The notes beneath the pieces are model-generated. The model saw nothing but the letters and a program-made list of their open reading frames with translations. It ran no database searches and was not told where the DNA came from. A stretch of DNA of 64,000 bases, from positions 62,001 to 126,000 of the forward strand of contig JANXSF010000102.1 in NCBI GenBank assembly GCA_025352795.1, given 5' to 3'. The position numbers and the translations under genes are program-made. This document shows, piece by piece, positions 31,935-36,012 of this stretch (positions within the stretch are counted from its first letter, which is position 1; every line of letters starts with the position of its first letter). The DNA comes from Acidobacteriota bacterium. GTDB taxonomy: Bacteria > Acidobacteriota > Terriglobia > Bryobacterales > Bryobacteraceae.

Positions 31935-33110
31935 TCAGCGCTTCTCTACTTCCGTTCCCCGATTCAGAATCTCTAAATATTTGTTGTAGACAAAAATACG
32001 ACGTCTCATCTTACCCGTCGTCTCTTTCAAAATACCCAGTTTCTGCAGATGCCCAATCGATTTGGCCACAGTGGGTTCGGAAAGTTCCATCTTCCCGGCA
32101 ATGGTTGGAATGGACACAATCGGATTCCGTTGCATGTATTGATACACCAGCATTGCCGAAGCCGCTGGCCGTCTTAGCCCCTCAATCACCTTCTTGTCCT
32201 GGGCAAATAGCGTTAGAATCTGGTGAGCCATCAGCGCCGAATCATCCGCGGTCTGCCGCACCCCTTCCAGGAAAAACTCACCCCACATCTCCCAATCGCC
32301 AGTTTGCCGAACATTTTCCAGTAGTTCGTAATAGGTAGACCGATGCTGCTTGAAGTAGAGGCTCATATACAGAATCGGTTCCCGCAAAACTTTGTTGGCG
32401 CAAAGCAACAGAGGAATCAATACGCGGCCAATGCGTCCGTTGCCGTCAAGAAACGGATGGATGGTCTCAAACTGCAGAGGGATCATGGCGATTTTCAACA
32501 GCAAGGGCAAATCGGGTTGATCGTTGTGAATAAAGAGTTCCAGAGCCCCCATCAACTCCATCACTTTTTCTGGCGGTGGAGGCACAAATAAAGCGTTACC
32601 GGGACGCGTCCCCCCAATCCAGTTTTGACTACGCCGAAATTCGCCTGGTTGCTTCTCGCTTCCTCGCCCCTTCGATAGCAAAATCGCGTGCATTTCACAG
32701 ATCAGCCGAAGAGACAAAGGAAATTCGTCATGCATCCTGGTCAACCCGTGATTCATAGAGGCAACGTAGTTGGAAACCTCCGTCACATCCCGCAAAAGAG
32801 CTCCGGGAATGTCTTCATGCTCATACATCAGCAGTTCTGAAATTGAAGATTGCGTTCCTTCAATCTGAGAAGAAAGTAACGCTTCTTTACGTACATAGAA
32901 GTACAGGAACAGCCCCAAATCCGGTAGCAGATTCGTCAATCCGTCCAACCGCCCCACTGCCTGATTGGCCACATCCAACAGCGAATGCATTCCGACGGTA
33001 GAAATTTGCGGAGTTGGCGGGAGCGGCTTCGGAATGTATGACCGTACCTTCTCACCACCAAAAGAAGTGATCAGATAGCTGCCTTCTGTGTCGAACGGTC
33101 GAGTTGCCAA
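31935..33110 (-). CDS. Fic/DOC family protein with C-terminal winged helix
   Basis: The 391-residue protein has the Fic core HPFLDGNGRIGR at 218-229. The catalytic His and the Mg/phosphate-binding loop are intact. The N-terminal segment has the inhibitory SSQIEG (80-85), the class II pattern whose Glu blocks ATP binding. The C-terminal 320-385 region resembles a winged helix (NPIVSIPTIAGKMELSEPTVAKSIGHLQKLG). Fic enzymes AMPylate protein hydroxyls; the target is unknown. It starts with TTG, and upstream codons reach a stop within four codons. Repeats in 33114-33232 suggest self-regulation by the winged helix. Confidence 0.88.
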   Translation of the reverse strand: MATRPFDTEGSYLITSFGGEKVRSYIPKPLPPTPQISTVGMHSLLDVANQAVGRLDGLTNLLPDLGLFLYFYVRKEALLSSQIEGTQSSISELLMYEHEDIPGALLRDVTEVSNYVASMNHGLTRMHDEFPLSLRLICEMHAILLSKGRGSEKQPGEFRRSQNWIGGTRPGNALFVPPPPEKVMELMGALELFIHNDQPDLPLLLKIAMIPLQFETIHPFLDGNGRIGRVLIPLLLCANKVLREPILYMSLYFKQHRSTYYELLENVRQTGDWEMWGEFFLEGVRQTADDSALMAHQILTLFAQDKKVIEGLRRPAASAMLVYQYMQRNPIVSIPTIAGKMELSEPTVAKSIGHLQKLGILKETTGKMRRRIFVYNKYLEILNRGTEVEKR

Positions 33111-33113
33111 GAC

Positions 33114-33232
33114 GGATAATTATCCTTTCCTTACCAAACTCCTTCTAACCAAAAAATCAGATTTCTTATCTTTTACAACATCTTACAAAGATATTTATCC
33201 TTTCCTTACGGATTCCTTAAGCAAAGGATAAT
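33114..33232. promoter_or_regulatory. operator-like repeat cluster upstream of fic
   Basis: A perfect 12-bp palindrome, GGATAATTATCC, lies at 33114-33125, directly before the fic TTG. TTATCCTTTCCTTAC is repeated exactly at 33120-33134 and 33195-33209 (75 bases apart), with a degenerate copy at 33166-33176, and GGATAAT occurs again at 33226-33232. The palindrome overlaps a -10-like GATAAT on the minus strand. Binding by the Fic winged helix is inferred. Confidence 0.5.
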
Positions 33233-33237
33233 GCAAA

Positions 33238-33263
33238 AAAGCTCTCCTATGAAGAAGAGCTTT
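33238..33263 (-). terminator. intrinsic terminator of the recO-glyQS-ppdK operon
   Basis: On the minus strand AAAGCTCT (33263-33256) and AGAGCTTT (33245-33238) pair as an 8-bp stem, followed by a T-rich run (33240-33235). It lies 26-50 bases after the ppdK stop at 33289. It ends the leftward operon and separates it from fic. Confidence 0.7.
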
Positions 33264-33288
33264 CTTAATAACCGAACTTTACAGCCGT

Positions 33289-36012
33289 CTAAGCCGTGCG
33301 GTTTGCCTCACCTTTCAGGCCGACCAATGCCGCTTGAGCTGCCGCTAAACGTGCAATCGGTACCCGATATGGAGAGCAACTGACGTAATCCATACCAATG
33401 CGATAGCAGAATTCGACACTGGACGGTTCCCCACCATGCTCACCGCAAATGCCGACTTCCAGATCAGGCTTAGTGCTGCGGCCCAACTTCACCGCCATTT
33501 CCACCAACTTGCCCACACCACCTTGATCCAGCACACCGAACGGATCAGCCGCAAAGATTTTCAAGTTCTCATATTCTTTCGAGAACTTCGTATAATCGTC
33601 ACGCGAAAGACCCATTGTGGTCTGCGTCAAATCGTTGGTGCCAAAGCTGAAGAAGTCAGCCTCAGTTGCAATTTCATCCGCCGTAATTGCAGCACGGGGG
33701 ATTTCGATCATCGTGCCGATCATGTAATGCTGATCCTTAAGACCGGCCTTGCCCAGAACTTCCTCAGCAATAGCCTTCACAATGGCCTTCTGGTGTGCCA
33801 GCTCTTTCACCGAACCCACCAGCGGAATCATAACTTCTGGAATCACCTTGACGCCCTTCTTGGCCACTTGTGCCACAGCTTCAAAGATTGCCCGAGCCTG
33901 CATTTCTGTGATCTCAGGATAGGTGATGCCCAAACGACAACCACGATGACCCAGCATGGGATTGAATTCATGCAGATCTTCTACACGCTTCAAAAGATCG
34001 GGCAGTTTCTTCTTCAATTCGCCCACAGCACAACCATAGCTGGCCGCCATGTCTTTCTTTTCTTTGGCAGTAGCGTATGGAAGTTTAGTGACATCCACCA
34101 TCAGGTGTTCGCGCTTAGGCAGGAACTCATGCAGTGGCGGATCAAGAGTACGGATCACTACAGGGAACCCGTCCATTGCCTTGAACAGACCGGCAAAGTC
34201 CGAACGCTGCATGGTAAGCAGTTTCTGTAAACACTTTTTACGATCCTTCACGTTTTCCGCCAGAATCATAGCCACAACGTGGGGCAAACGATCTTCAGCG
34301 AAGAACATATGTTCCGTACGGCACAGCCCGATTCCTTCAGCACCGAACTTCCGGGCCACCTTGGCATCGTGCGGAATATCGGCATTGGCTCGGACCCCGA
34401 ACTTGCCACGGAATTCATCGGCCCAACTCATGAACTCGGCAAACTCACCGCGAGTCGGATCGGCTTCATTGGTCTTGGCCTGTCCCAAATAAACGTTGCC
34501 GGTTGTCCCGTCAATTGAAATCCAATCGCCTTCTTTAACAGTCGAACCGGCACAAGTGAATAGCTTCTTGTGTTCGTCGATGCGAATTTCGCCAGCACCC
34601 ACAATGCAAGGTCGGCCCATCCCGCGTGCGACCACCGCAGCGTGGGAGGACTTGCCACCAATGGCCGTCAAAATACCTTTGGCAGCATCCATCCCGGCAA
34701 TATCGTTTGGTGTGGTTTCTTTACGAACCAGAATCACCGGTGACTTCGCCGAGGCGGCAACCACATCTTCAGCCGAGAAATAACAGCGACCCACAGCAGC
34801 GCCTGGTGATGCAGCAATCCCAGTGGAAAGCATTTTCAGCGTTTTCAGAGATGCCGCATCAAACACCGGATGCAGCAGTTGATCGAGCTGCGCTGGAGCT
34901 ACGCGCATAATCGCTTCCTGCTTGGTGATCAAGCCTTCCTTGGCCATTTCCACAGCCAAACGAAGTGCTGCCGGACCGGTACGTTTCCCGTTACGGGTTT
35001 GCAGCATGTACAGCGTGTTGTCTTCCACCGTGAACTCAAAATCCTGCATGTCACGATAATGCTTTTCCAGGCTGTTGGTGATTTCACGCAACTGCTTATA
35101 GACAGCAGGCATCGCCTTATTCAGTTCGGCAATGGGACTTGGCGTGCGGATACCCGCTACTACGTCTTCGCCCTGAGCATTGATCAAAAATTCGCCGTAG
35201 AATACATTTTCACCAGTGGCCGGATCGCGAGTGAAGCCCACGCCAGTAGCCGATGTTTCGCCTAAGTTTCCGAACACCATCGCCTGAACATTGGCCGCTG
35301 TGCCGATTTCGTCGGGGATCTTTTCCATCTTGCGATAGTAAGCTGCCTTGTCGTTCCACCAGGATCTGAACACAGCATCGCGGGACATCTTCAACTGCAC
35401 ATGCGGATCCTGCGGAAATTCCTTACCTGTCTCTTTCTTTACCAGCTTCTTGTAATCTTCAATGATCAAGGCCAGATCTTCAGCATTCAGATCTGTGTCC
35501 AACTTAACTTTTCGCTTGGCCTTCATGGCGTCGAAAATGTGGTTGAACTTTTCCATGTGAATGTCCAACGCAACTTCGCCGAACATCTGCAAAAAGCGCC
35601 GGTAACAATCGTTGGCAAAGCGCGGATTGTTGGACTTTGCCGACAGCACTTTCACCGTGACGTCATTCATGCCCAGGTTTAAAATGGTGTTCATCATGCC
35701 GGGCATAGAGAACTTTGCACCGCTTCGAACGCTCAGCAGCAGCGGGTCAGTAGCACTGCCCAGCTTCTTGCCAGTGCGCTCTTCTAAGGTGCGCAACGCC
35801 ACTTCCATCTGGTCTTCAATTTCCTGAGGAACCTTGTTTCCATTCTCGAAGTAAATGGTGCAAACTTCGGTGGAAACGGTAAAACCTGGAGGCAAAGGGA
35901 TGCCGGCCAGGCTCATTTCAGCCAGCCCTGCACCCTTTCCGCCTAGGATCTCTTTCATGGAACCATTGCCGTCGGCGGTACCTGCGCCCCAGCTAAATAC
36001 TTGTTTCTTCAT
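33289..36012 (-). CDS. ppdK: pyruvate, phosphate dikinase
   Basis: The 907-residue enzyme interconverts pyruvate, ATP and phosphate with PEP, AMP and PPi. The ATP-grasp start reads EILGGKGAGLAEMSLAGIPLPPGFTVSTE, the phospho-His segment is GGKSSHAAVVARGMGRPCIVG, and the C-terminal PEP-binding barrel carries CGEHGGEPSSVEF with the catalytic Cys. AGGAGAG precedes the ATG. It is 31 bases after glyS and last in the operon. A PPDK next to glycyl-tRNA synthetase genes is common in this phylum by my recollection. Confidence 0.96.
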   Translation of the reverse strand: MKKQVFSWGAGTADGNGSMKEILGGKGAGLAEMSLAGIPLPPGFTVSTEVCTIYFENGNKVPQEIEDQMEVALRTLEERTGKKLGSATDPLLLSVRSGAKFSMPGMMNTILNLGMNDVTVKVLSAKSNNPRFANDCYRRFLQMFGEVALDIHMEKFNHIFDAMKAKRKVKLDTDLNAEDLALIIEDYKKLVKKETGKEFPQDPHVQLKMSRDAVFRSWWNDKAAYYRKMEKIPDEIGTAANVQAMVFGNLGETSATGVGFTRDPATGENVFYGEFLINAQGEDVVAGIRTPSPIAELNKAMPAVYKQLREITNSLEKHYRDMQDFEFTVEDNTLYMLQTRNGKRTGPAALRLAVEMAKEGLITKQEAIMRVAPAQLDQLLHPVFDAASLKTLKMLSTGIAASPGAAVGRCYFSAEDVVAASAKSPVILVRKETTPNDIAGMDAAKGILTAIGGKSSHAAVVARGMGRPCIVGAGEIRIDEHKKLFTCAGSTVKEGDWISIDGTTGNVYLGQAKTNEADPTRGEFAEFMSWADEFRGKFGVRANADIPHDAKVARKFGAEGIGLCRTEHMFFAEDRLPHVVAMILAENVKDRKKCLQKLLTMQRSDFAGLFKAMDGFPVVIRTLDPPLHEFLPKREHLMVDVTKLPYATAKEKKDMAASYGCAVGELKKKLPDLLKRVEDLHEFNPMLGHRGCRLGITYPEITEMQARAIFEAVAQVAKKGVKVIPEVMIPLVGSVKELAHQKAIVKAIAEEVLGKAGLKDQHYMIGTMIEIPRAAITADEIATEADFFSFGTNDLTQTTMGLSRDDYTKFSKEYENLKIFAADPFGVLDQGGVGKLVEMAVKLGRSTKPDLEVGICGEHGGEPSSVEFCYRIGMDYVSCSPYRVPIARLAAAQAALVGLKGEANRTA

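What the first reader, a model, noticed from the sequence alone, without database searches (positions are those of the whole stretch)
33111..33232. Palindrome and 15-bp direct repeats covering the fic start
GGATAATTATCC touches the presumed -10 and start of fic, TTATCCTTTCCTTAC is repeated exactly 75 bases apart, and a third half-site follows. The Fic protein has its own winged helix, so the locus may be a self-repressing circuit. The 75-base spacing is near seven helical turns and permits looping.
Basis: partly seen in the sequence, partly recalled or inferred. Interest (0 to 1): 0.5.

Follow-up and report, generated by a model that had tools for sequence, protein, structure and literature searches.

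The report
Self-repression operator of a Fic toxin
The repeats in front of this anti-phage-type Fic gene are one version of a DNA switch found before its relatives in many bacterial phyla, and the letters of the switch change in step with the part of the Fic protein expected to read them, so the protein very probably represses its own gene.

Summary
TTATCCTTTCCTTAC occurs twice, 75 bp apart, and a third copy lies inverted beside the distal one; these are the only exact matches to their consensus in the held 6.05-Mb genome. The 12-bp palindrome is unremarkable. The inverted pair (33195-33231) has the geometry of an operator that orthologous fic genes carry. A dyad pattern built from those orthologues hit 10 of 237 genomes (the window's own included), each beside fic: 7 at full-length genes, 3 at fragments. 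In 59 of 101 loci three half-sites (forward, reverse, forward) pass the shuffle threshold, first and third 41 bp apart, over a TATNNT -10-like box. Half-site letters diverge but track residues 345-346, the start of the predicted recognition helix: P346 goes with A at position 8 in 47 of 47 rows, A346 with T in 13 of 13. Self-repression is strongly supported, not shown. The 75-bp spacing is absent from the 100 other loci. The protein matches the SoFic anti-phage family. An autorepressing Fic, CccR, is published, so this is a new operator variant of a known kind.

The parts
31935..33110 (-). fic: 391 aa, TTG start; Fic_N + Fic domains and C-terminal winged helix (helices 316-326, 334-341, predicted recognition helix 345-357); SoFic family
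33218..33226 (+). Half-site h2 (TAAGCAAAG on +; CTTTGCTTA on the coding strand), reverse orientation, overlaps the -10-like box
   Evidence: same place as h2 in orthologues
33200..33208 (-). Half-site h3 (copy B, TAAGGAAAG), pairs with h2 at the family's 27-bp outer span (9-bp words)
   Evidence: family geometry
33197..33229 (.). Core operator dyad ATCCTTTGCTTA-n8-GTAAGGAAAGGAT (coding strand), 33 nt; the only ATCCTTT-N15..24-AAAGGAT in the held genome
33225..33230 (-). -10-like box TATCCT, at the position where 34 of 56 operator blocks have TATNNT; weak -35-like TTCATA at 33253-33248
33125..33133 (-). Extra half-site A (TAAGGAAAG) 75 bp downstream of B; 50 nt before codon 10 (30 of 59 passing loci have h3 at 48-52 nt)
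33114..33125 (.). 12-bp palindrome GGATAATTATCC at the outer end of half-site A; B differs by one base in the repeated stretch
   Evidence: weak by chance test
33234..33267 (-). Terminator-like hairpin after the upstream gene ppdK; covers the place where h1 lies in orthologues
   Evidence: expected h1 position reads TAGGAGAGC

Best explanation
33111-33232 is the promoter-operator of fic. A weak -10-like box (33230-33225) overlaps the reverse half-site h2. Fic protein, probably as a dimer, binds the inverted pair h2/h3 with its C-terminal winged helix and blocks RNA polymerase, which keeps a potentially toxic AMP-transferring enzyme scarce. Shown by comparison: the operator is conserved in architecture, its dyad was found only beside fic genes or fragments in the genomes searched, and it co-varies with recognition-helix residues. 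Inferred: that binding occurs, that it represses, and which pair of half-sites one dimer covers. The extra half-site A is particular to the window and may add a roadblock in the leader or at the ribosome-binding region.
For: Dyad pattern search (pattern drawn from orthologues seen): 10 of 237 family genomes, 0 in the reversed control; 10 of 10 loci lie beside fic, 7 full-length, 2 N-terminal and 1 C-terminal fragment; 5 of the 10 were not fetched by the earlier protein search. Inverted repeat in 90 of 101 upstream regions against 179 of 505 shuffles. Three-half-site geometry above the 99th percentile of 2020 shuffles in 59 of 101; first-to-third distance 41 stands out from 36-46. The 34 passing named loci fall in 13 phyla. 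Co-variation: the highest APC-corrected score over 380 columns x 11 positions is residue 346 with position 8; 6 of the top 8 pairs are residues 345-347, the start of the predicted recognition helix 345-357. Partial Mantel operator~HTH given Fic domain 0.32, 0 of 2000 permutations. Second sample, without duplicates and operator-found loci: 12 of 24 pass; P346-AA 8 of 8, A346-TT 3 of 3. Upstream ORFs are unrelated between loci: 1 of 4656 pairs similar. Precedent: CccR (PMC9755527, passages read).
Against: No binding or expression data. The window itself does not reach the three-site threshold (score 18, above 21 needed): h1 is absent and the third site is displaced. 42 of 101 loci, and 12 of 24 in the cleaned second sample, miss the threshold. 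The residue changes are few on the tree: 4 at 346 and 6 at 345; on supported branches there are only 2 and 1 independent pairs, so the sign test cannot reach significance. The fifth-highest co-variation pair is residue 28, outside the winged helix, and 19 of the top 30 pairs lie outside residues 316-385. At position 7, P346 rows are A 43, C 4. No clear -35.
Confidence: 0.85

Rival explanations
1. One reading: Fic bound at A and at B/h2 holds a 75-bp DNA loop that represses fic.
For: Two nearly identical sites 75 bp apart, about 7.1 turns at 10.5 bp per turn; A sits close to the start codon.
Against: A direct repeat of 9 nt or more at exactly 75 bp is in 1 of 101 loci, the window; one other locus, L085, has a 15-nt direct repeat at 72 bp. 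The common direct spacing is 41 bp.
Confidence: 0.12
2. RNA switch: h2 and h3 pair in the mRNA and hide the ribosome-binding site.
For: h2 and h3 are complementary, and in a number of orthologues h3 carries AAAGG near the start codon (read by eye).
Against: TATNNT overlaps h2 in 34 of 56 blocks, so h2 would lie mostly upstream of the transcript; the window leader folds no better than shuffles (z -0.47); no Rfam family reaches its gathering score, though two models far below theirs have E 0.0006 and 0.0023; a hairpin does not predict co-variation with recognition-helix residues.
Confidence: 0.04
3. A host transcription factor, not Fic, reads the operator.
For: An inverted repeat over a promoter is a general repressor site.
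Against: The exact sites occur only here in the held genome; the operator goes with fic in 13 phyla and beside unrelated upstream ORFs; letters track Fic residues.
Confidence: 0.04
4. Repeat debris: A and B are duplicate ends of an insertion or a partial tandem duplication and A does nothing extra. This concerns only the extra copy and is compatible with the best explanation.
For: A 20-nt direct repeat flanks about 55 bp; A lies close to a usual h3 position relative to the start, B at the h3 position relative to h2.
Against: Cannot explain the conserved h2/h3 pair; decayed half-sites in the 56 bp between were tested and not found (312 and 384 of 1000 shuffles score as well).
Confidence: 0.3

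Closest known systems
CccR of Yersinia pseudotuberculosis (PMC9755527; passages read)
   Same: Class II Fic with C-terminal HTH; reported to bind inverted repeats near -35/-10 of its own promoter and to repress itself (footprint, EMSA, ITC and lacZ there).
   Different: Its operator is two 10-bp repeats 26 bp apart with different letters; here three 9-bp half-sites, first and third 41 bp apart, in 59 of 101 loci. CccR is described there as a T6SS effector.
SoFic / Sofic anti-phage Fic family (PADLOC PDLC03963; PMC12249575, abstract and passages read)
   Same: The window protein matches the PADLOC SoFic model at E 2.9e-115; its predicted fold is near SoFic 3zcn/3eqx.
   Different: E. coli Sofic is reported with a downstream antitoxin gene AS1; here the fic stop abuts a convergent gene. 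A 2023 paper states DNA binding by SoFic had not been shown (PMC10628234).
CbFic2 of Coxiella burnetii (PMC10628234; abstract, outline and passages read)
   Same: Fic with C-terminal HTH whose activity is reported to change on DNA binding.
   Different: Random DNA was used there; the passages read call for future work on a specific binding sequence.

Membership tests
SoFic anti-phage family | Match to PADLOC SoFic model over nearly full length | tested here: met
   E 2.9e-115, residues 21-384 on model 5-360/361
SoFic anti-phage family | NCBIfam NF046030 equivalog cut-off | tested here: not met
   145.9 bits against 550; so not called the SoFic equivalog
SoFic anti-phage family | Protection from phage | not testable with these tools
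   needs a plaque assay
Class II Fic AMP transferase | Catalytic motif HPFxxGNGRxxR and N-terminal (S/T)xxxEG inhibitory helix | tested here: met
   HPFLDGNGRIGR 218-229 and SSQIEG 80-85 in P0001; example motifs in the passages, general form recalled
Fic-HTH autorepressor (CccR type) | Inverted repeats over the promoter of its own gene | tested here: met
   the promoter is predicted, not mapped
Fic-HTH autorepressor (CccR type) | Own HTH contacts the operator | tested here: inconclusive
   strong co-variation but no binding assay
Fic-HTH autorepressor (CccR type) | Repression of own promoter in vivo | not testable with these tools
   needs a reporter fusion

The most novel reading that the evidence does not exclude
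SoFic-type Fic proteins are one-gene toxin-repressor circuits: the anti-phage enzyme is its own antitoxin at the promoter through a three-half-site operator with a simple, evolving residue-base code, and loss of operator DNA or of dimerisation during phage infection both de-represses the gene and switches the enzyme on.
Probability: 0.12. Interest if true: 0.8.

Novelty: new variant of a known kind. Interest (0 to 1): 0.55.

Why it matters
The regulation of the Sofic defence enzyme's toxicity is called elusive in the abstract of PMC12249575. A family-wide operator with a residue-base correlation makes self-repression directly testable and supplies many natural protein-site pairs (101 loci and 30 examined here; 587 candidates) for studying how DNA recognition evolves. 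It also offers a sequence signature for marking fic control regions.

Tried and rejected
Decayed half-sites between B and A: gapped alignment no better than shuffles. RNA structure of the leader: z -0.47; sub-threshold Rfam hits not used. Promoter scan of 33050-33300: the only sigma-70-like hit is on the other strand. ppdK as a conserved neighbour: found only in L001 and L121, both the window's own locus (my first parse printed the query name and was discarded). The other five Fic proteins of the genome were not analysed further. Plasmid relatives: the S. meliloti pSymA copy shows half-sites 41 bp apart by eye; I saw no such pattern in the Thermus and Haloarcula copies; none of the three was scored. 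I noted at first that 7cb8 was CccR (note); one search shows it is a Mycobacterium marinum protein, and this is not used.

Rows dropped: L072 (match starts at the contig end, no upstream), then 8 of 109 loci without an aligned N terminus, leaving 101 with the window's own. The fixed geometry was chosen on these same loci; its +23 offset is a choice of register (offsets 19, 21, 25, 27 score about alike, because the two dyad centres, not the word edges, are fixed), whereas 41 is distinctive. For co-variation, 3 of 59 passing loci with h3 far from the start were left out, 12 near-threshold loci and the window row (sites placed by hand) were added, then 6 rows dropped (L050, L096 with the winged helix cut; L104, L110, L048, L009 with unclear register), leaving 63. 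Second sample: 14 of 30 loci passed. L116 and L123 had been found through the operator; L128, L141 and L143 are 100% identical in protein to L037, L052 and L076, and L131 has the upstream sequence of L050. Without these six, 12 of 24 passed.

Full report
Observation. TTATCCTTTCCTTAC is at 33120-33134 and 33195-33209, and a two-mismatch copy lies on the other strand at 33217-33231. The direct repeat is longer than in any of 1000 shuffles; a palindrome like GGATAATTATCC is not unusual (71 of 1000). In the window's held 6.05-Mb genome the three sites are the only exact matches to their consensus, and ATCCTTT-N15..24-AAAGGAT occurs once, here.

The gene. The fic frame (31935-33110, minus strand, TTG) encodes 391 residues with Fic_N and Fic domains. 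It matches PADLOC's SoFic model at E 2.9e-115 but not NCBI's SoFic equivalog cut-off. AlphaFold (23 family sequences, mean pLDDT 75; 79-112, 149-172 and 221-223 below 50) gives a C-terminal winged helix, pLDDT block means 88-94 over 311-360 and 70 in the wing, with recognition helix 345-357. The nearest solved structures are the Mycobacterium marinum and Shewanella Fic proteins. The fic stop abuts a convergent gene, so there is no room directly downstream for an antitoxin like the reported AS1; AS1-like genes elsewhere were not searched for.

Orthologues. 48 of 200 family genomes hold a relative at E <= 1e-60; the best 80 of 587 candidates were kept from named genomes (a capped list). After dropping loci without usable upstream, 101 remain, the window's own among them; 90 have an inverted repeat (9-bp arms, at least 8 matches) in the 150 nt before codon 10, against 179 of 505 shuffles. 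A free search for forward-reverse-forward triplets gave 63 of 101 above the shuffle 99th percentile, and in 49 of these the first and third sites are 41 bp apart. With geometry fixed, 59 of 101 exceed the threshold, and spacing 41 stands out from 36-46. The 34 passing named loci fall in 13 phyla. The geometry was chosen on the same data; in a second sample 14 of 30 loci passed, 12 of 24 after removing duplicates and loci found through the operator, against about 1% expected from shuffles.

The window in that frame. Its reverse site h2 (33226-33218) and site B (33208-33200) have the family's 27-bp span, and TATCCT at 33230-33225 sits where 34 of 56 operator blocks have TATNNT. h1 is missing; its place is covered by a terminator-like hairpin after ppdK. 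Site A lies 50 nt before codon 10; 30 of 59 passing loci have h3 at 48-52 nt. So the window carries two of the three canonical sites plus an extra one, and by the strict three-site test it fails (18; above 21 needed). A direct repeat of 9 nt or more at exactly 75 bp is in no other of the 101 loci; L085 has a 15-nt one at 72 bp.

Specificity. A dyad pattern drawn from the orthologues, searched without the protein in 237 family genomes, hit 10 genomes, the window's own included, and none in the reversed control. In 9 of the 10 the dyad is 33 nt, in one 34, though the pattern allowed 30-36. All 10 loci lie beside fic: 7 full-length, 2 N-terminal fragments (L117, L124), 1 C-terminal fragment (L125). 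Longest upstream ORFs (not all real genes) are unrelated between loci: 1 similar pair of 4656 from 97 loci.

Who reads it. In 63 rows, P346 goes with A at position 8 in 47 of 47 (position 7: A 43, C 4) and A346 with T at both positions in 13 of 13. A345 goes with CG in 14 of 14, F345 with TT in 18 of 18, Y345 5 of 5, I345 4 of 4; P345 is mixed (TT 9, AG 1, AT 1), Q345 is mixed (TT 1, AG 1), and E345 is never TT (4 rows, the window among them). The strongest APC-corrected pair is residue 346 with position 8, and 6 of the top 8 are residues 345-347; residue 354 is second and residue 28, outside the winged helix, fifth; 11 of the top 30 pairs are in residues 316-385, which hold 18% of the columns. 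Operator distance follows winged-helix distance after removing Fic-domain distance (partial r 0.32, 0 of 2000 permutations; partial r of operator with the Fic domain given the winged helix 0.18). On a quick Fic-domain tree residue 346 and its base change four times each; the 2 independent pairs on starred branches agree, too few for significance; residue 345 changes 6 times, its bases 7, with 1 starred pair. In the cleaned second sample (12 passing) P346-AA was 8 of 8, A346-TT 3 of 3, N346-GC 1; at 345, F-TT 4, P-TT 4, P-AG 1, I-TT 1, A-CG 1 and A-AG 1.

Mechanism. The simplest account is that Fic sits on the promoter through its winged helix and represses its own gene. Binding, dimer use and repression are inferred. 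CccR gives a published precedent with footprint, EMSA and lacZ data but a different operator (AGATAATCAT-N26-ATGATAATCT). My ten paper searches, in an open-licence library and seen as listings apart from the papers named, showed no SoFic operator; absence from print is not established.

Verdict. Real, biologically meaningful, and larger than described; the self-repression idea is right in outline, while the palindrome and the 75-bp loop are not the heart of it.

Noticed in passing
L117, L124, L125 (genomes G173, G130, G052): The operator dyad is intact beside fic fragments, suggesting that fic decays while the operator lingers.
   Followed up: partly
L028, upstream of fic: By eye the half-sites continue as a longer array of forward and reverse copies beyond the usual three.
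   Followed up: no
L048, L110, L152: Rows with H or N at residue 346 have GC in the half-site where P346 rows mostly have AA, a possible further letter of the code (L110 register set by eye).
   Followed up: no
L002-L006 (own genome): Five further, distant Fic proteins (27-37% identity over part of the protein) are encoded in the same genome.
   Followed up: no
plasmid records, e.g. L154: 207 plasmid records encode relatives at E <= 1e-40, 98 of them on plasmids predicted conjugative.
   Followed up: partly
L085, upstream of fic: A 15-nt exact direct repeat at 72-bp spacing, the only one besides the window's of that length at 60-95 bp in 101 loci.
   Followed up: no
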